Shown here piece after piece: positions 45,104 to 54,182 of a stretch of DNA of 64,000 bases. This DNA comes from a virus. The notes under the pieces are model-generated. The model worked only from the letters and a program-made list of their open reading frames with translations, had not been told where the DNA came from and made no database searches. Location of the stretch: IMG/VR virus record IMGVR_UViG_3300031334_000002, positions 16,106 to 80,105 of that record; one strand, given 5' to 3'. Numbering within the stretch: the stretch's first letter is position 1; each line of letters begins with the position of its first letter. The position numbers were made by a program, and so were the translations under genes.

Positions 45104-45294
45104 TGTTATATGTGTTTTTACTTGTAGTACTTTCTTGGTTATTTTCGGTTCATCATGTGGAAAGAGCACATAAGATAGTGGAAAGGTGTAGGATAGAAAG
45201 AACATCTAGGTATAGAAAGTTAAAAAAAGAATTGTTTATAGAAAGAGAACATGTTAAACTACTAGTGAGTTCAGCAGCAAGGAGAGTGAAGTGA
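45097..45294 (+). CDS. Small membrane protein with basic tail
   Basis: This 65-residue protein has a strong N-terminal membrane span (VVLYVFLLVVLSWLFSV), then a long Arg/Lys-rich helix (ERCRIERTSRYRKLKKELFI). The layout resembles an inner-membrane spanin or a small membrane regulator. Not assignable further. GTGA overlap with the next gene. Confidence 0.48.
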   Translation: MVVLYVFLLVVLSWLFSVHHVERAHKIVERCRIERTSRYRKLKKELFIEREHVKLLVSSAARRVK

Positions 45295-46178
45295 TAACAA
45301 TAAGAACTCAGAGAGAATGGGATGAGCTACCAGAATTGTTCGATGAGTTTACCGTGATTGAAATAAGGTCGGAAGAATGGGTTAAGATAAGAAAGACACC
45401 TGAAAACTCTCGTGTTGAGGCATGGGGCTCTTCTCGTGTTGAGGCAAGGGGCTCTTCTCGTGTTGAGGCAAGGGGCTCTTCTCGTGTTGAGGCATGGGGT
45501 TCTTCTCATGTTGAGGCATGGGGTTTTTCTCGTGTTGTGGCATGGGGCTCTTCTCGTGTTACGGCATGGGGCTCTTCTGTTTGTGATAACGGGTCAACAA
45601 ACACTCAAATTCAAGCAGGAGACAATTCTACACTATATCTAAATGTCGAGCCGGCACACTTTAAGGCTGAAGACACGGTAAATATTATCAGGGAGTTTAT
45701 TTCGCCTTCTTTCGAGCGGTGGCTGAGTCGTGGTTGGGTTGTTGCCGACGGTATTAGACAAAAATTGGTCAGCAAAAAATCCCTTGGCAACATTACAATT
45801 TACACCACTGAGGATTTTTGGGGCGAGACTTTTTACGTCGCACAGCTTGGTGATAAGTTCGCACACGCAAATTCTATTGAAGAAGCAAAAAATGACCTTA
45901 GGTACAAAATTTCTGACAGAGATAAGTCACACTACGAAAGCTGGACGCTCGAAACCAGCGCAAAGGTAGACGATATGATTGAGGCGTATAGAGTAATAAC
46001 CGGTGCGTGTTCGACTGGCACGAAAATGTTTTGTGAAGGACGCGAGCTGAAGGATGACTACACGGTTAAAGAGGTGATTGATTTAACTAAAGGACAATAT
46101 GCAAGCGAACAGTTTTCGCAGTTTTTTAAGAGCAAGCAAGGAGAGTTTTTAGCTAAGATTAATGGAGGTGAGAAATGA
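45291..46178 (+). CDS. RVEAWGSS-repeat protein
   Basis: GTG start in a GTGA overlap; 295 residues. Residues 41-96 are seven copies of an 8-residue repeat R/H-V-x-A-W/R-G-S/F-S, then a strand region (TNTQIQAGDNSTLYLNVE), as in small beta-helix proteins. Residues 130-295 form another domain with RGWVVADGIRQKLVSKKSLG, EDFWGETFYVAQLGDKFAH, a Cys region TGACSTGTKMFCEG and ending SQFFKSKQGEFLAKI. Base composition from about 45640 to 46110 is visibly richer in G and C than the surroundings, suggesting recent transfer. Function unknown. Confidence 0.55.
   Translation: MITIRTQREWDELPELFDEFTVIEIRSEEWVKIRKTPENSRVEAWGSSRVEARGSSRVEARGSSRVEAWGSSHVEAWGFSRVVAWGSSRVTAWGSSVCDNGSTNTQIQAGDNSTLYLNVEPAHFKAEDTVNIIREFISPSFERWLSRGWVVADGIRQKLVSKKSLGNITIYTTEDFWGETFYVAQLGDKFAHANSIEEAKNDLRYKISDRDKSHYESWTLETSAKVDDMIEAYRVITGACSTGTKMFCEGRELKDDYTVKEVIDLTKGQYASEQFSQFFKSKQGEFLAKINGGEK
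45411..45578 (+). repeat. Tandem 24-base repeat inside the RVEAWGSS gene
   Basis: Seven copies of a unit like CGTGTTGAGGCATGGGGCTC plus TTCT, with most differences in the codons for Trp/Arg and Glu/Val/Thr. Confidence 0.85.
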
Positions 46179-46960: not shown

Positions 46961-47188
46961 ATGTTTAAAATAGAAGACGTATATTTTGATGAACTAGATT
47001 ATTTTTTTAACTACGAGTTTGATTTTCCTAATGATGAAACTTTTCCACTAGATAATAAACAGAAAGAGATTGACACAGGGTATTGTTCATGTAATAATAG
47101 GAAAGAGACTAAGGTTCTAATTATGAACGAAGTTGTATATGTATGTAAAAAAGCCGATGGTGGCTGTGGTCGAGAAATAAAAAAATGA
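46961..47188 (+). CDS. Small acidic protein with Cys-rich C-terminus
   Basis: This 75-residue protein has an acidic, aromatic N-terminal half (IEDVYFDELDYFFNYEFDF) and a zinc-type C-terminus (GYCSCNNRKETKV, then YVCKKADGGCGREIKK). Unknown family. Overlaps the PRPP-synthetase-like gene by 4 bases. Confidence 0.48.
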   Translation: MFKIEDVYFDELDYFFNYEFDFPNDETFPLDNKQKEIDTGYCSCNNRKETKVLIMNEVVYVCKKADGGCGREIKK

Positions 47189-47955
47189 TATACTTAGAAA
47201 ACCAACCAGTGGATGTTACTATATTTCCTGATAAAACCTCTCAAGTATGGAATGTTAATGAACAATGTTTAGCCTCAATAAAAAACTTTACTAATGGCGC
47301 TCAGTGTACCGTTACTTGGTCTTTTGAAAGTGAGGGTGAATTTCTTCATCTTGCTCAATTAAAAGATCTACTAGATAGCGAAGGTATTTCGTCTATACTA
47401 AATATACCAACGTTACCCTATGCTAGACAAGATAAGGAGATTAACAATAAAGAAACGTTTGCACTTAGAACTTTTGCTAAATTATTAAATACTCTAAAAT
47501 TTAAAAGAGTCTATTCAAAAGACGTACATAATATAAAATTAACGGAAAGTCTAATAGACAACTTCGCTAACATAGCTGCCGACCCTTCTATCAATATGGT
47601 ATTTGATAGAGTAAAAGCTGATATGATATGTTTTCCTGACGAGGGAGCTAAACTTAGGTATAACCTAAAAAAAGAGAGCTGTTATGGTATCAAAAAACGA
47701 TGTCCTGAAACAGGGTATATAGAAGGGTATAATTTCGTTGGTGAAGTTAGAGGTAAGATTATTCTGATCTGTGATGATCTTGTTGATGGCGGTATGACAT
47801 TTATAAAATGTACTGAGAAATTACTACAAGGGGGGGCGAAAGAGGTTTACTTATATGCCAGTCATGGTATATTTAGTAAAGGAACTAACGTTCTTTTTGA
47901 TGCAGGAATTAGTAGAATTTTTACAAAGGAAGGAGAAATAAATGAAAGGTCTTAA
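47185..47955 (+). CDS. PRPP-synthetase-like kinase (Adps candidate, NAD+ repair)
   Basis: This 256-residue protein keeps the main features of ribose-phosphate pyrophosphokinases: LPYARQDKE at 77-85 (ATP-binding flag region), SKDVHN at 111-116, FPDEGAKLRY at 150-159, and a PRPP loop CDDLVDGGMTF at 196-206 followed by ASHGIFSKG. It is shorter than bacterial Prs (about 310 residues). With the transferase gene next to it (14-base overlap) it forms a two-gene NAD unit. Phage versions of this pair include classical NAD+ salvage and the NARP1 counter-defence. In NARP1 the kinase (Adps) makes ADP-ribose pyrophosphate and the transferase (Namat) adds nicotinamide. Which substrate this enzyme prefers cannot be read from the sequence. 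Confidence 0.78.
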   Translation: MIYLENQPVDVTIFPDKTSQVWNVNEQCLASIKNFTNGAQCTVTWSFESEGEFLHLAQLKDLLDSEGISSILNIPTLPYARQDKEINNKETFALRTFAKLLNTLKFKRVYSKDVHNIKLTESLIDNFANIAADPSINMVFDRVKADMICFPDEGAKLRYNLKKESCYGIKKRCPETGYIEGYNFVGEVRGKIILICDDLVDGGMTFIKCTEKLLQGGAKEVYLYASHGIFSKGTNVLFDAGISRIFTKEGEINERS

Positions 47956-50380
47956 TGCGATGTTATTAGCTGATTTTTATAAGCTAGCTCATCGTCGCCA
48001 GTATCCAGAGGGGACAGAATATGTATTCTCCACTTGGACTCCACGATCAGGAAAACATTTACCCAACTCAGAACATGCTGTTTGTTTTGGTATTCAAGGA
48101 TTCGTTAAAGAATTTCTAATTGACTTTTTTAATGAGAGTTTTTTCAGTAAAGACAAGCAAGAAATAGTAAAAGAGTACAAAAGATTCGTAAGTGCTACAT
48201 TATTAGTTAAAGACCCAGAAACTGATCATATCGAAGATCTTCACGATCTAGGTTATTTACCTATCCTTGTTAAATCGTTAGAGGAGGGCACTAGAGTTCC
48301 TTTCCGAGTTCCCATGATGACCATTGAGAACACTGATCCTAGATTCTTCTGGTTGACTAATTATCTAGAAACCCTAGCTTCATGTAATCTATGGAAACCT
48401 TCAACAACTGCAACTATTTCTTTAATGTATCGAGAAATCTTGAACAAGTATGCTATGGAGACAACGGGCTCTATGGAGGGCGTAGAGTTCCAAGGGCATG
48501 ATTTTAGTATGAGAGGGATGAGTGGTATGGAAGATGCTGCTAGAGCTGGTACCGGGCATCTTCTGAGCTTTGTAGGCACTGATACTATACCTGCTATCCA
48601 ATATTTAGAACAATACTATAATACTGACGTTACAAAAGAACTTGTAGGATGTTCAGTTCCTGCTTCAGAGCATTCTGTGATGTCATCAGGTTCGAAAGAA
48701 GGAGAGTTTGAAACTTACAGAAGATTGATTGAAGACGTACATCCTACTGGAATTGTTTCACTTGTTTCTGATACTTGGAATCTATGGCATGTAATAACTG
48801 ACACTCTTCCTAAACTTAAAGATAAGATTATGACTAGAGACGGTGGACCTGACAGTTTAGATAAAGTCGTCATCAGACCCGACTGCTACGATGACCAAAC
48901 TAAGATTATGACGGAAAGAGGGTGGGTTTTCTTTGATGACTTACGACCTGAAGATAAAGTAGCGCAGGTTTTAGATGATGGATCTCGGGAGTATATTAAA
49001 CCAACTAAAGTAGTAAAACAAAGATATGAAGGACCTATGGTTAGTTTTAAGGATCATTTTGGTAAAATGGATTTGATTGTTACCCCCAACCATAGAATGA
49101 TTTTTAATAAAAAAGGAACTGAGTTTGTTCAACTAGCTGAAGATTTCACTCAAGGGTATCATGGTAAAAACATAGTTAGAAGTTCACCAACAAAAGACCT
49201 CAATGAATTTATCAGTCCTATGGATAGATTAAAGATAGCATTTCAGGCTGACGGTAGTTACCAAACAGGCAAGACTGATAGAATTAGGTTTAGCTTTTCT
49301 AAAGAGAGGAAAATAAAAAGACTATCTAATATCCTCGATCAGTTAAACTATGAATATAAAATAAACAACTTAGGTGGCGGGAGCGTTGAATTTAAAGTCA
49401 ACACTGTTGTTGAATTAAGTAAAGACTTCAATTGGGTAAACACGGTTAATCCTTGTTCTAATTGGTGTAAGCAATTCATAAACGAACTATCTCATTGGGA
49501 TGCAACTATTAGAAATGAAGGTAGAATAAAGTTCGATACAACAAACGAAAATGTCATAGGAGTCGTTGAGGAAATCGCATTATGTTCTGGTTATGGGGTT
49601 TTGGTTTGTGAAAAAGAAGATAATAGAAAAGAACATTTTTCTAAGGTATACACTGCTCATATATTAAAGAATAATGAAATCGGTGGACAGTCTATAAAAA
49701 AAGAAACTATAGAAAAGTATAATGGATTTGTTCATTGTGTACAAGTGCCAACTGGTAAGATTTTAGTAAAAAGGAACAGATGTACTGCGGTTTGTGGTAA
49801 CAGTGGCGACCCTGTAGACATCCTTTGTGGAACATATAAAGAAGGTCATATATTACCAAAATCTCTACCAGAGCATAAAGGAGTGGTAGAACTTCTATGG
49901 GACATTTTTGGAGGAACTGTAAATGAACAAGGCTACAAAGTTCTAGACTCTCACATTGGAGCTATCTACGGAGACTCTATCACCCCTGAGAGATGTACAC
50001 AGATTTGTGAAAGGTTGAAAGCTAAAGGTTTTGCTTCAACCAATGTTGTCTTCGGTATCGGTTCTTATACTTACCAATACATAACCAGAGATTCTTTAGG
50101 CTTTGCTATGAAAGCTACTTCCGTTACTATTAACGGAAAAAAACAAGCTATCTTCAAAGATCCAATTACAGATGATGGGACAAAGAAATCAGCTAAGGGT
50201 AGAGTTGTGGTGCTTGAGGACGAGGAGAACGGTATCCATTATGTAGATAGTAGTATGTATAACAGTAGTGAATTGAACCTATTATCACAATCTGACCTGT
50301 TGACACCTATTTTTGAAAATGGTAAACTCTTAAAAGAGACATCATTGGTAGAAGTGAGGAGTAGGTTAAATGATAACTAA
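47942..50380 (+). CDS. Nicotinamide phosphoribosyltransferase-like enzyme interrupted by an intein (Namat candidate)
   Basis: The 812-residue translation has exteins of 314 and 192 residues (506 together, near the 491 of human NAMPT) around a 306-residue intein. The extein keeps HDFSMRG (residues 186-192, matching human Phe193/Arg196), FVGTDT (the Asp that favours nicotinamide), PASEHSV with catalytic His244, and RPD at 312-314, continuing after the intein as SGDP. So the RPDSG(D/N)P active-site loop is split exactly after the catalytic Asp (human Asp313), and splicing must occur for activity. It would form NMN from nicotinamide and PRPP or, with an Adps-type partner, NAD+ from ADPR-PP. A macro-domain gene follows with an 11-base overlap. 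Confidence 0.88.
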   Translation: MKGLNAMLLADFYKLAHRRQYPEGTEYVFSTWTPRSGKHLPNSEHAVCFGIQGFVKEFLIDFFNESFFSKDKQEIVKEYKRFVSATLLVKDPETDHIEDLHDLGYLPILVKSLEEGTRVPFRVPMMTIENTDPRFFWLTNYLETLASCNLWKPSTTATISLMYREILNKYAMETTGSMEGVEFQGHDFSMRGMSGMEDAARAGTGHLLSFVGTDTIPAIQYLEQYYNTDVTKELVGCSVPASEHSVMSSGSKEGEFETYRRLIEDVHPTGIVSLVSDTWNLWHVITDTLPKLKDKIMTRDGGPDSLDKVVIRPDCYDDQTKIMTERGWVFFDDLRPEDKVAQVLDDGSREYIKPTKVVKQRYEGPMVSFKDHFGKMDLIVTPNHRMIFNKKGTEFVQLAEDFTQGYHGKNIVRSSPTKDLNEFISPMDRLKIAFQADGSYQTGKTDRIRFSFSKERKIKRLSNILDQLNYEYKINNLGGGSVEFKVNTVVELSKDFNWVNTVNPCSNWCKQFINELSHWDATIRNEGRIKFDTTNENVIGVVEEIALCSGYGVLVCEKEDNRKEHFSKVYTAHILKNNEIGGQSIKKETIEKYNGFVHCVQVPTGKILVKRNRCTAVCGNSGDPVDILCGTYKEGHILPKSLPEHKGVVELLWDIFGGTVNEQGYKVLDSHIGAIYGDSITPERCTQICERLKAKGFASTNVVFGIGSYTYQYITRDSLGFAMKATSVTINGKKQAIFKDPITDDGTKKSAKGRVVVLEDEENGIHYVDSSMYNSSELNLLSQSDLLTPIFENGKLLKETSLVEVRSRLNDN
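48884..49801 (+). mobile_element. Intein with LAGLIDADG endonuclease in the NAMPT-like gene
   Basis: This 306-residue in-frame insert starts with Cys1 (CYDDQTKIMTERGW) and has block B with TPNHRM (Thr67, His70). It ends with a block F/G region CVQVPTGKILVKRNRC and a last CGN before Ser+1. The residue before the final Asn is Gly rather than the usual His, a known variant. A LAGLIDADG-type first motif is seen in KIAFQADGSY (about residues 117-126) and a weaker second in INELSHWDATI, so it probably spreads by homing. Insertion is at the enzyme's catalytic loop, the conserved type of site inteins favour. Confidence 0.88.
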
Positions 50381-50825
50381 ACACATCAAGGGTGACGTTA
50401 GAGACACAGAACTTAACTTCATGGCTCACGGTGTAAACTGTCAGAATGTCATGGGTAGTGGGGTAGCTAGAGCTTTATTTGAAAGATACCCAGAAGTAAA
50501 AAGCGAATACCACCGTTACCTTTCTCTAGATGATGAAGTATTTGGTAGTGCTCATAGACTAGGAGAAGTGCAACTTGTTGATGTTGGATCTGATAAAACC
50601 GTGCTTAACATGTTCACACAGAATAACTACGGAGGTGACGGTAGTAGGTATGTTAATTATGATGCTATATTTAATTGTTTCATTTTCGTTAATAACGTGC
50701 TAAAGTTACCTAAATTGGCAATACCTAAGATAGGATGTGGGCTTGCTGGAGGTAGTTGGAATCTAGTTGAAGCTATTATAAATGAGTGTACACCAGATAC
50801 TGAGGTATGGGTTTATGAGTATTGA
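50370..50825 (+). CDS. Macro-domain (ADP-ribose-binding) protein
   Basis: This 151-residue protein has the whole macro fold pattern: KGDV at 7-10, HGVNCQNVMGSGVARAL at 20-36 (adenosine/ribose loop), and IPKIGCGLAGGSW near 118-130 (phosphate loop with GxGxGG). It is closest in style to Poa1p/TARG1-type domains that hydrolyse ADP-ribose 1-phosphate or remove ADP-ribose from proteins or DNA. Being in the NAD island, it may recycle ADPR for the kinase or undo ADP-ribosylation by host defence toxins such as DarT. It overlaps the NAMPT-like gene by 11 bases. Confidence 0.85.
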   Translation: MITKHIKGDVRDTELNFMAHGVNCQNVMGSGVARALFERYPEVKSEYHRYLSLDDEVFGSAHRLGEVQLVDVGSDKTVLNMFTQNNYGGDGSRYVNYDAIFNCFIFVNNVLKLPKLAIPKIGCGLAGGSWNLVEAIINECTPDTEVWVYEY

Positions 50826-51327
50826 TTGGTCTAAATCTCATTGTGGCGTCATGTTATGTTCTTTTGACGAAACCATAAGAATGATGCCAGAAGTGAAACC
50901 TATTCTAGACGATCTTATAGGTAAACTCGAACTAGATATTAGTGAATGTGTCGTTGATGTAAAAGTTCACATGTTGATGCCGGATGAATACCCCTGTATA
51001 CCTAACTGGCATAGAGATTTTATACCTAGGAATACTAAATTACACAAATTACATAAAAATATCAGTAATCAAAAAATGTACTTGTGGATAAGCGGAGAAC
51101 CGAAGACTGAATGGAAAAAAGAACCAAAAAAACTATCAGGAGAGTATGATTGGGTTGAATTTACGCAACGAGATGTTCACAGAGGAGTTAAATCAACGAA
51201 ACATACATGGAGGTGTTTTATTAGAGTTATACCTAAAGACTTCATTCACCCAACAACAACTAATGTTGGTCAACTTAGAAGACATTCGCAGGTTTACATT
51301 GACGATCCTGATAGGTTCAATTGGTGA
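50815..51327 (+). CDS. 2-oxoglutarate/Fe(II)-oxygenase-like protein (tentative)
   Basis: ATG 50815 is chosen (GAGGTATGGGTTT before it); 170 residues, 11 bases inside the macro gene. IPNWHRDFIPR carries an H-x-D pair, and QRDVHRG with a later WRCFIRV carries the distal His and Arg, the order of 2OG/Fe(II) oxygenases or phytanoyl-type hydroxylases. MYLWISGEPKTEW between them is typical of this phage family. The substrate is unknown. Confidence 0.5.
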   Translation: MSIDWSKSHCGVMLCSFDETIRMMPEVKPILDDLIGKLELDISECVVDVKVHMLMPDEYPCIPNWHRDFIPRNTKLHKLHKNISNQKMYLWISGEPKTEWKKEPKKLSGEYDWVEFTQRDVHRGVKSTKHTWRCFIRVIPKDFIHPTTTNVGQLRRHSQVYIDDPDRFNW

Positions 51328-53276: not shown

Positions 53277-53509
53277 TGAACATTCGGGATAAAAAATTAT
53301 TAATTCAACATGGTTATGGTTTATACATATATACGATCAGTGAAATAGACGATATCTATAGTAAAGACAACGAAGCAGATATTTCTTTTCTTTTGCCCAA
53401 AAACGGATTGTTTTTTGAAGAAGTAAAAATAAGAAATAGAAATCATTTTTTTCAGTATATAGATGAATTACAATTAGAATTAAATAAAGGAAACAATGAT
53501 GGCAGATAA
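53276..53509 (+). CDS. Small protein (unknown)
   Basis: ATG 53276 in a TAATG overlap; 77 residues. Beta-rich start (KKLLIQHGYGLYIYTISEID), acidic middle, then a helix. No family is recognised. The NTGxx gene begins in its last codons. Confidence 0.45.
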   Translation: MNIRDKKLLIQHGYGLYIYTISEIDDIYSKDNEADISFLLPKNGLFFEEVKIRNRNHFFQYIDELQLELNKGNNDGR

Positions 53510-54182
53510 AAAAGGGAACACTGGTTACAGGAACACTGGTAGCTGGAACACTGGTTACAGGAACACTGGTGACATGAACACTGGTAACTATAACAATGGT
53601 GACAGTAACACTGGTAGCTGTAACACTGGTAGCCGGAACACTGGTAACTATAACAATGGTGACAGTAACACTGGTAGCTGTAACACTGGTTACAGGAACA
53701 CTGGTAACATGAACACTGGTAACATGAACACTGGTAGCTGGAACACTGGTAACTGGAACACTGGTAACTGGAACACTGGTGACTGGAACACTGGTGACCT
53801 AAATACTACCAAACCTACCGTTAGGCTTTTTAATAAAGATAGCGGATTAGAGTTTAATGGAGAAGTTCACATTAAAATTAGAAACACTGTAAGTAGTTAT
53901 CAAAAAATGCTAGGTGAATGGGTCTATGAAAAAAACATGACTGACCAAGAGAAGACTGATAATCCTACATATAAAACTACTGGAGGATACTTAAAAGTAA
54001 ACAAAAGTGTTTACAACGGCAAAAAGGTAACGAAGGAGCATATATGTTTTCTAGAATCTTTGCCTAATTTTTGTCCTAAGATTCTAAAGGAATGTACTGG
54101 TATTGACTTAGAAGAAAAAACATGTAACAATAAAATTGTTGAAATTGATGGCAAAAAATACAAGCTTATGGAGTTAAAATGA
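53499..54182 (+). CDS. NTGxx pentapeptide-repeat protein, copy 2
   Basis: ATG 53499 is used to match the MADKKG start of copy 1 (an ATG 3 bases upstream is also usable). About 227 residues: 19 NTGxx repeats, then the same C-terminal domain as copy 1 (LGEWVYEKNMTDQEKTDN, TTGGYLKVNKS, ESLPNFCPKILKE). About 14 kb separates the two copies. The C-terminal half differs in many positions, so the duplication is old, while the repeat DNA remains almost identical. Confidence 0.65.
   Translation: MADKKGNTGYRNTGSWNTGYRNTGDMNTGNYNNGDSNTGSCNTGSRNTGNYNNGDSNTGSCNTGYRNTGNMNTGNMNTGSWNTGNWNTGNWNTGDWNTGDLNTTKPTVRLFNKDSGLEFNGEVHIKIRNTVSSYQKMLGEWVYEKNMTDQEKTDNPTYKTTGGYLKVNKSVYNGKKVTKEHICFLESLPNFCPKILKECTGIDLEEKTCNNKIVEIDGKKYKLMELK
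53517..53801 (+). repeat. Tandem 15-base repeat inside the NTGxx gene, copy 2
   Basis: Nineteen units of AACACTGGT plus 6 variable bases. A block of units (TNY NN DS, NT SC) is itself duplicated inside the array. Confidence 0.9.

What the first reader, a model, noticed from the sequence alone, without database searches (positions are those of the whole stretch)
47185..50825. NAD/ADP-ribose island: kinase, nicotinamide transferase and macro domain in one overlapping operon
Three overlapping genes encode a PRPP-synthetase-like kinase, a NAMPT-like transferase and a macro-domain protein. Phages that carry a Prs-like plus NAMPT-like pair can rebuild NAD+ after host defences destroy it (NARP1: ADPR to ADPR-PP to NAD+). 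Here the third gene, a macro domain, could release or recycle ADP-ribose, or reverse ADP-ribosylation toxins such as DarT. This would make a counter-defence with both NAD repair and de-ADP-ribosylation arms. The motifs are seen in the sequence; the combined role is inferred.
Basis: partly seen in the sequence, partly recalled or inferred. Interest (0 to 1): 0.9.

Follow-up and report, generated by a model that had tools for sequence, protein, structure and literature searches.

The report
Phage NAD repair operon with intein
A phage carries a known two-enzyme pathway that rebuilds NAD+ after bacterial defences destroy it, next to a third gene that probably frees ADP-ribose to feed it; the second enzyme is interrupted in its active site by a self-splicing element, so it should work only after that element cuts itself out.

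Summary
The three overlapping genes are real. The spliced 506-aa protein scores 593 bits to phage-type entries in the PDB against 236 for the best other NAMPT, has the published Namat signature (GSYTYQYITRD) and 17 of 20 NAD+-contact residues. The kinase is outside cellular Prs and has the loop seen next to Namat genes. NARP1 is well supported by sequence; activity is untested.

The macro domain is a frequent NARP1 neighbour: 11 of 25 macros in 50 records lie within 200 bp of the pair, 1.0 expected (10 of 24 without the window's near-copy); 30 further records added two near-copies. DarG's catalytic lysine is Gln here, so DarT reversal is not supported. Poa1p-like release of ADP-ribose to feed NARP1 is the best reading but unproven, and a 2025 paper on phage Adele already proposed it. 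Inteins sit at the same site in Stab20, Tr1 and L003; Stab23 has one beside the catalytic His.

Verdict: known kind, with a splicing-dependent variant.

The parts
47185..47955 (+). Adps-like kinase (Prs fold, 256 aa); predicted to make ADP-ribose pyrophosphate from ADP-ribose and ATP
   Evidence: ORF, 7 families; tree outside the 6 cellular Prs; loop CDDLVDGGMTF where those 6 read DT[GA]GT or DSGGT; AF2 model pLDDT 94.8, the 50 Foldseek hits listed are PRPP synthetases
47942..50380 (+). Namat precursor ORF (812 aa) holding an intein
   Evidence: Namat signature GSYTYQYITRD (L002, whose protein is identical; definition from PMC12774641)
47942..48883 (+). N-extein of Namat (aa 1-314), ending ...VIRPD
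48884..49801 (+). Intein, 306 aa (aa 315-620): Cys1, TPNH block, two LAGLIDADG-like motifs (LKIAFQADGSY, ELSHWDAT; named by eye), C-terminal CGN before Ser+1
   Evidence: Pfam Intein_splicing and Hint_2, both weak, phrog_12229 E 1.5e-29; same site and 306-309 aa in L003, Stab20, Tr1; coordinates
49802..50380 (+). C-extein of Namat (aa 621-812), starting SGDPVDILCG
50370..50825 (+). Macro domain protein (151 aa), Poa1p/TARG1/DarG-like fold; predicted to release ADP-ribose from 1''-linked derivatives
   Evidence: PF01661; AF2 model pLDDT 93.2; VIA-align Z 22.0 to 2fg1, 19.2 to Poa1p 6lfr, DarG 5m3e and TARG1 4j5r
50782..51327 (+). Overlapping downstream gene of unknown function (phrog_1843, 181 aa), possibly in the same transcript; membership in the system unproven
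   Evidence: a homologue (E 3e-10) overlaps the end of Namat in L060

Best explanation
The locus is a phage NARP1 counter-defence operon with an ADP-ribose-handling accessory gene. Host NADases break NAD+ to nicotinamide and ADP-ribose. The kinase (Adps) adds a pyrophosphate to ADP-ribose. Namat joins ADP-ribose pyrophosphate to nicotinamide and restores NAD+. In this phage Namat is made as a precursor, presumably inactive, whose intein must splice out before the RPDSGDP motif is whole, so the last step depends on protein splicing. The macro protein most likely cleaves 1''-substituted ADP-ribose (ADP-ribose-1''-phosphate, acyl-ADP-ribose or an immune ADP-ribose conjugate) to free ADP-ribose, which feeds Adps. 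Shown by sequence: gene order, family membership, motifs, intein and its position, macro neighbourhood. Inferred: every catalytic step, splicing, and the macro substrate. My odds: NARP1 identity 0.9, intein that must splice for activity 0.8, macro as ADP-ribose supplier 0.45.
For: Namat: phmmer 593 bits to 9w5x/9w5w and 495 to 9ke8, against at most 236 for the other NAMPT-type entries (these three are titled 'nicotinamide phosphoribosyltransferase' in the PDB, and that they are phage Namats is inferred). Signature GSXphiXphiXphiTRD is met. 17 of 20 NAD+-contact residues of SPbetaL1 Namat are identical, the others being R40K, A362S and F392Y; a His is kept at SPbetaL1 position 245, which I take as the catalytic His. 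Adps: the 6 cellular Prs form one group at 100/100 on a branch of 2.26 that excludes the window. The loop differs from all 6 cellular Prs and resembles phage kinases beside Namat. 79 of the 80 Namat loci have an Adps-like ORF in the fetched stretch (in the exception, L060, Namat lies at the very start of the stretch), and 76 of 80 carry the Namat motif. Macro: within 200 bp of the pair in 11 of 25 macro hits from 50 records, 1.0 expected, P 8e-10 with the A2 profile; 8 of 21, 0.8 expected, P 5e-7 with Pfam. Without L002, the window's near-copy, and without L018, a near-copy of L017, it is 9 of 23, 0.9 expected, P 9e-8. The other 30 records add 2 macros, in near-copies of two counted records. 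Poa1p His23 and Asn26 correspond to H20 and N23. Published precedent for a third NARP1 gene that supplies ADP-ribose: RyDEP in phage DyoEdafos (PMC13232231, passages).
Against: No activity was tested. The window kinase is not in the same supported group as the biochemically tested SPbetaL1 Adps; their join is weak (73/97), so ADP-ribose specificity of the kinase is inferred. The kinase model matches PRPP synthetases in the PDB, and none of the 31 PDB sequence hits is named Adps, so no solved Adps was compared. Poa1p Ser30 is V27, Gly33 is S30 and Phe152 is A126 here (alignment, numbering inferred from a 3-residue offset), so Poa1p-like catalysis is uncertain; 7 of 31 macros lack the His, the adjacent L017 and L018 among them. 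8 of 25 macros lie more than 10 kb from NARP1, Pfam finds one more far one (L020), and 53 of 80 Namat records show no macro with the A2 profile (many records may be fragments), so the macro is not required. Clustering Namats at 70% identity leaves 7 clusters with an adjacent macro out of 16, and at 60% 2 of 3, so the P values overstate independence. On the macro tree the adjacent label is only weakly clustered and its changes may be gains or losses. The intein ends in Gly-Asn, not His-Asn.
Confidence: 0.5

Rival explanations
1. NARP1 plus a macro protein that binds or degrades a TIR-made immune signal (for example His-ADPR), so that the operon blocks signalling and repairs NAD+ separately.
For: [quoted passage not shown] RyDEP, another gene in a NARP1 operon, cleaves 2'cADPR and 3'cADPR; Iyer et al. 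argued that phage macros mainly target soluble ADP-ribose derivatives (PMC9503650 passages).
Against: The closest relatives that the ThsA paper lists are MacroD-like and MacroH2A-like domains, while this one is nearest to Poa1p, TARG1 and DarG; no evidence for signal binding here.
Confidence: 0.25
2. NARP1 plus a DarG-like de-ADP-ribosylase that reverses DarT damage on phage DNA.
For: PADLOC DarG E 5e-14, NF048014 DarG E 2e-11 but 44 bits against a cut-off of 250; fold Z 19.2 to DarG 5m3e.
Against: The residue aligned with the DarG catalytic Lys (position recalled, alignment) is Gln84; 0 of 12 NARP1-adjacent macros have Lys there, and the only 2 Lys among the 31 macros compared are in non-adjacent ones. 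No DarG C-terminal part. A known anti-DarT factor of phage ICP1 is thought to block the toxin directly (PMC11481870 passages).
Confidence: 0.07
3. Housekeeping-type PRPP synthesis plus NAMPT, a metabolic gene pair that makes NMN, with the macro gene unrelated.
For: GenBank records annotate such pairs this way; Namat keeps some PRPP activity in vitro (PMC12774641).
Against: Namat signature and contacts, altered kinase loop, non-random macro position.
Confidence: 0.05
4. The intein insertion has inactivated this copy of Namat, so the operon is decaying.
For: Penultimate residue is Gly, not the common His; no splicing data.
Against: Long uninterrupted frame, intact extein contacts, four related inteins at one site all ending GN|S with intact frames, and the splice-junction residues Cys1, Asn306 and Ser+1 are kept.
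Confidence: 0.08

Closest known systems
NARP1 (Adps plus Namat) of Bacillus phage SPbetaL1
   Same: Gene order Adps then Namat, Namat signature, 17 of 20 NAD+-contact residues, catalytic core (PMC12774641 results parts 1 and 2 of 3 read; phage Bas63, also named there, was not compared)
   Different: SPbetaL1 Namat has no intein and no macro ORF was found in its 6,384-base stretch; here Namat has an intein and a macro gene overlaps its end
NARP1 plus downstream macro gene in Pseudomonas phage Adele, and the same order by annotation in pakpunavirus JG004
   Same: Adps, Namat and a macro gene close downstream; ADP-ribose release for NARP1 already proposed (PMC12846349 passages; JG004 order, its Namat motif not checked)
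   Different: Here the macro overlaps Namat by 11 bases with no gene between, and Namat carries an intein; Poa1p Gly33, kept in Adele, is Ser here
RyDEP within the NARP1 operon of mycobacteriophage DyoEdafos
   Same: Third gene in a NARP1 operon whose product, ADP-ribose, is shown to feed NARP1 (PMC13232231 passages)
   Different: RyR-domain glycosidase, another protein family; the macro activity is untested
Intein-bearing 'nicotinamide phosphoribosyltransferase' of Staphylococcus phage Stab20 and Citrobacter phage Tr1
   Same: Intein at the identical RPD|SGDP site, 307 and 309 aa
   Different: Other phage groups; no macro ORF was found in the fetched stretches; Stab23 has a related intein (37% identity) at another site, SIPA|TEHS
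Poa1p, yeast ADP-ribose-1''-phosphatase
   Same: Fold (Z 19.2, rmsd 2.0, 145 aligned); His23 and Asn26 kept
   Different: Ser30, Gly33 and Phe152 positions differ; 23% identity

Membership tests
NARP1 | Namat signature GSXphiXphiXphiTRD | tested here: met
   GSYTYQYITRD; definition in PMC12774641
NARP1 | Namat catalytic and NAD+-contact residues | tested here: met
   17 of 20 identical to SPbetaL1, including R306 and D308; R40K, A362S, F392Y; His at position 245
NARP1 | Kinase distinct from housekeeping Prs | tested here: met
   6 cellular Prs form one 100/100 group without the window; loop differs
NARP1 | Adps and Namat adjacent in one operon | tested here: met
   14-base overlap, same strand
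NARP1 | Makes ADPR-PP and then NAD+ from nicotinamide | not testable with these tools
   needs enzymes
Intein (Hint plus LAGLIDADG) | Cys1, TxxH block, C-terminal Asn, Ser/Thr/Cys at +1 (features recalled) | tested here: met
   Cys1, TPNH, GN|S; Pfam Intein_splicing E 4e-4 and Hint_2 E 5e-3, both below gathering scores
Intein (Hint plus LAGLIDADG) | Penultimate His (common, not defining; recalled) | tested here: not met
   Gly in all four inteins at this site; Gly also in the Stab23 intein
Intein (Hint plus LAGLIDADG) | Splices | not testable with these tools
   needs expression
DarG antitoxin | Catalytic Lys of the macro part | tested here: not met
   Gln84 at the aligned position; that this Lys is catalytic is recalled
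DarG antitoxin | C-terminal DarT-blocking domain | tested here: not met
   protein is 151 aa; NF048014 matched only at positions 3-147 of 338
DarG antitoxin | DarT partner gene | not tested
   no DarT search was run on the record
Poa1p-like ADP-ribose-1''-phosphatase | Fold | tested here: met
   Z 19.2 to 6lfr; DarG and TARG1 tie, so the fold does not single out Poa1p
Poa1p-like ADP-ribose-1''-phosphatase | Residues His23, Asn26, Ser30, Gly33 listed for Poa1p in PMC12846349 | tested here: inconclusive
   His and Asn kept, Ser30 is V27, Gly33 is S30 (residue list)
Poa1p-like ADP-ribose-1''-phosphatase | Hydrolyses ADP-ribose-1''-phosphate | not testable with these tools
   needs enzyme

The most novel reading that the evidence does not exclude
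The operon extends NARP1 to defences or toxins that do not make free ADP-ribose: the macro enzyme turns ADP-ribose-1''-phosphate (the product of RES-type NAD+ phosphorylases) or other 1''-linked ADP-ribose into the NARP1 substrate. In addition, the active-site intein works as a switch that lets NAD+ rebuilding start only under particular infection conditions.
Probability: 0.12. Interest if true: 0.75.

Novelty: new variant of a known kind. Interest (0 to 1): 0.45.

Why it matters
NARP1 is a recently described way for phages to undo NAD+ depletion. Macro genes next to it, in two gene orders and at more than chance frequency, suggest that the supply of ADP-ribose limits the pathway, or that several NAD+-derived products have to be handled. 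That is directly testable with three small enzymes. Inteins at two active-site positions of Namat, in phages of different host groups, give ready-made systems in which NAD+ rebuilding should depend on protein splicing.

Tried and rejected
Housekeeping Prs plus NAMPT: rejected on the Namat signature, contacts and tree. DarT reversal: not supported by the Lys to Gln change. Searches of viral contigs with the single macro or kinase protein found one record each, the one that L002 also comes from; relatives came through Namat (best 80 of 110 kept). Megablast of window 40000-64000 against 50,697 phage records gave no match. The Pfam scan of 28 genes from between Adps and Namat did not identify the largest cluster (12 members by BLAST); it was called HAD-like by eye (DYDDTVF) and from one weak hit, and PHROGs names the family of the two members scanned 'phosphoheptose isomerase'. 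Rfam at gathering score found only tRNAs in the window and in L065, no intron. A paper search for Poa1p with H23A returned nothing.

NAMPT intein in print: (intein with three spellings of the enzyme) list 10 different papers. I saw passages of five of them (PMC7824862, PMC5618024, PMC5259590, PMC5107563, PMC7344957 with 12 of 13 places shown), none of which places an intein in this enzyme; PMC7344957 places an HNH element in it. I did not open PMC3185647, PMC7685451, PMC3706429, PMC5526547 or PMC9769974, so a published report may exist there. (intein, 'Staphylococcus phage', NadV; two of three terms) lists 12 papers, of which I saw passages in PMC5618024, PMC6022877 and PMC9503650. The Stab23 GenBank entry notes a Hint domain in this gene, so depositors had seen it.

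The kinase tree used 37 of the 79 kinase loci, chosen by me, plus 10 named phage and 6 cellular rows. One partial, stop-bearing macro match in G037 was left out of the count. Of the 11 phage records that cover at least 80% of the precursor, I looked at three (Stab20, Tr1, Stab23).

Full report
What is there. The window is bases 16106-80105 of an 80,105-base virus record. It carries phage genes (terminase, head protein, RIIA and RIIB-like proteins, DnaB-like helicase, DNA polymerase). They are a Prs-like kinase, a NAMPT-like transferase and a macro domain.

The transferase is Namat, and it carries an intein. The ORF is 812 aa. Pfam and PHROGs matches split into two transferase parts with an intein between them. 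The insertion lies between VIRPD and SGDP, residues 315-620, bases 48884-49801. In SPbetaL1 numbering, Arg306 and Asp308 of this motif contact the product ribose, and R306A cut NAD+ production about 11-fold (PMC12774641, results parts 1 and 2 of 3 read). The uncut precursor should therefore be inactive; this is inference. The intein has Cys1, a TPNH block, two LAGLIDADG-like motifs (named by eye) and a CGN|S end. Besides L002, an IMG/VR record with the identical protein, the IMG/VR record L003 (with its near-copy L004), Staphylococcus phage Stab20 and Citrobacter phage Tr1 have inteins at the same site. The phage collection holds 2,033 records with a match to this ORF, of which 11 cover at least 80% of it. 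I looked at three of the 11. One, Staphylococcus phage Stab23, has its intein at another place, SIPA|TEHS, beside the catalytic-His motif, 37% identical.

After removal of the intein, the protein has the Namat signature GSYTYQYITRD and 17 of the 20 NAD+-contact residues that the paper lists for SPbetaL1 Namat (R40K, A362S, F392Y). Its best solved relatives score 593 and 495 bits, against at most 236 for other NAMPT-type entries. Of the 80 Namat loci in viral contigs, 76 carry the motif. Of the other four, L043 and L066 are incomplete in the fetched stretch, L065 has the motif in a separate second ORF (GSYTYNYVTRD) and L076 lacks it at full length.

The kinase is Adps-like. A tree of 53 kinases puts 6 cellular Prs in one 100/100 group on a branch of 2.26, without the window protein. 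The window lies in a 17-row group (100/94) of kinases that sit beside Namat. The tested SPbetaL1 Adps is in another group, and the join of the two is weak (73/97). Two phage kinases annotated as prs (L094, L095), both beside Namat-motif partners, fall next to cellular Prs. In the ribose-phosphate loop, the cellular Prs read DT[GA]GT or DSGGT, while the window reads DGGMTF and SPbetaL1 Adps reads SSFGGTF. The AF2 model (pLDDT 94.8) is of the Prs fold. So the kinase is not housekeeping Prs; that it takes ADP-ribose is inferred from its neighbour and loop.

The macro gene belongs to the neighbourhood. Within the fetched stretches, 19 of the 80 viral loci have a macro ORF. In whole records, a profile of these macros found 25 in 50 records and 2 in the other 30; Pfam's own model found 21 and 2, one of them (L020) not in the first list. 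For the 50 records, 11 of 25 macros lie within 200 bp of the Adps-Namat span (1.0 expected, P 8e-10), or 8 of 21 by the Pfam model (0.8 expected, P 5e-7). Without L002, the window's near-copy, it is 10 of 24 (0.9 expected, P 7e-9), and without L018 as well 9 of 23 (0.9 expected, P 9e-8). The 2 in the other 30 records lie in L004 and L050, near-copies of L003 and L049. The test treats records as independent; at 70% Namat identity the 25 fall into 16 clusters, 7 with an adjacent macro, and at 60% into 3, 2 with one. Two orders occur: macro after Namat (window, L005, L007, L041, L054) and macro between Adps and Namat (L015, L017, L018, L038, L049, L050, L072). A named phage, Pseudomonas phage JG004, has a macro with one gene between it and the annotated transferase. 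Adjacent macros are not one clade: starred branches force at least 4 changes, which may be gains or losses, and 42 of 500 shuffles of the label are as clustered.

What the macro may do. The AF2 model (pLDDT 93.2) matches Bacteroides 2fg1 (Z 22.0), then DarG, Poa1p and TARG1 at a tie (Z 19.2). The DarG catalytic Lys position is Gln84, and no NARP1-adjacent macro (0 of 12, JG004 included) has Lys there, while 2 of the other 19 have. This speaks against DNA de-ADP-ribosylation. The His and Asn of Poa1p are kept (H20, N23) but Ser30, Gly33 and Phe152 are not. Position 20 is His in 24 of 31 macros; the adjacent L017 and L018 have Gln. Known bacterial sources of ADP-ribose-1''-phosphate are RES toxins such as NatT and MbcT (PMC11535050 and PMC8883491 passages). 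The NatT authors, however, found no sign of a phage-defence role. RyDEP, a different protein inside a NARP1 operon, turns 2'cADPR into ADP-ribose that NARP1 enzymes use (PMC13232231 passages). That makes an ADP-ribose supplier the most natural role for a third NARP1 gene.

What is known already. The Adele paper (PMC12846349 passages) names Adps, Namat and a downstream macro gene, and proposes release of ADP-ribose for NARP1. The idea is therefore in print as speculation. A search for NARP1 with 'macro domain' gave one paper, whose passages discuss the two separately; it did not list the Adele paper, whose text does not hold the word NARP1. For an intein in this enzyme, I saw none in the passages read, but five listed papers were not opened (see Tried and rejected), and the Stab23 GenBank entry notes a Hint domain. 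An HNH element in the gene is published for phage CB7 (PMC7344957 passages).

Verdict. NARP1 with a macro neighbour is a known kind. The window adds a Namat interrupted at its active site by an intein, and this study adds counts for the macro link. The two-arm model with DarT reversal is not supported.

Noticed in passing
L011, L012, L016, L020, L021, L030, L053, L073, L078, L079, L080, L081 (between Adps and Namat): A second small gene family (DYDDTVF motif, HAD-like by eye and one weak Pfam hit; phrog_1238 for the two members scanned) sits between Adps and Namat in 12 loci, the same slot that macro genes take elsewhere. It may be another NARP1 accessory.
   Followed up: partly
L116 1498-3936 (Staphylococcus phage Stab23): Namat with a related intein at a different active-site position, SIPA|TEHS, next to the catalytic His motif.
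   Followed up: partly
L065 3121-5447 and L066 1232-2736: Namat ORFs are broken or end early close to HNH-like (L065, minus strand) or GIY-YIG-like (L066) ORFs, so Namat may be a target of several kinds of mobile element. The labels are by eye.
   Followed up: partly
L020 5556-5972, L055 5579-5974, L044 5343-5807: Nucleoside 2-deoxyribosyltransferase-like genes lie between Adps and Namat (3 of 28 scanned genes match PF15891; that these are the three is my guess from their sequences).
   Followed up: no
window 50782-51327: Unknown gene (phrog_1843) overlaps the macro gene by 44 bases; a homologue overlaps the end of Namat in L060.
   Followed up: partly
window 45291-46178 and 53496-54182: Two proteins with strong short repeats (RVEAWGSS-like and NTGxxNTG-like); the first matches phrog_15773 of unknown function.
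   Followed up: no
window about 32000: Gene direction and GC skew switch here, from mainly minus-strand genes to plus-strand genes.
   Followed up: no
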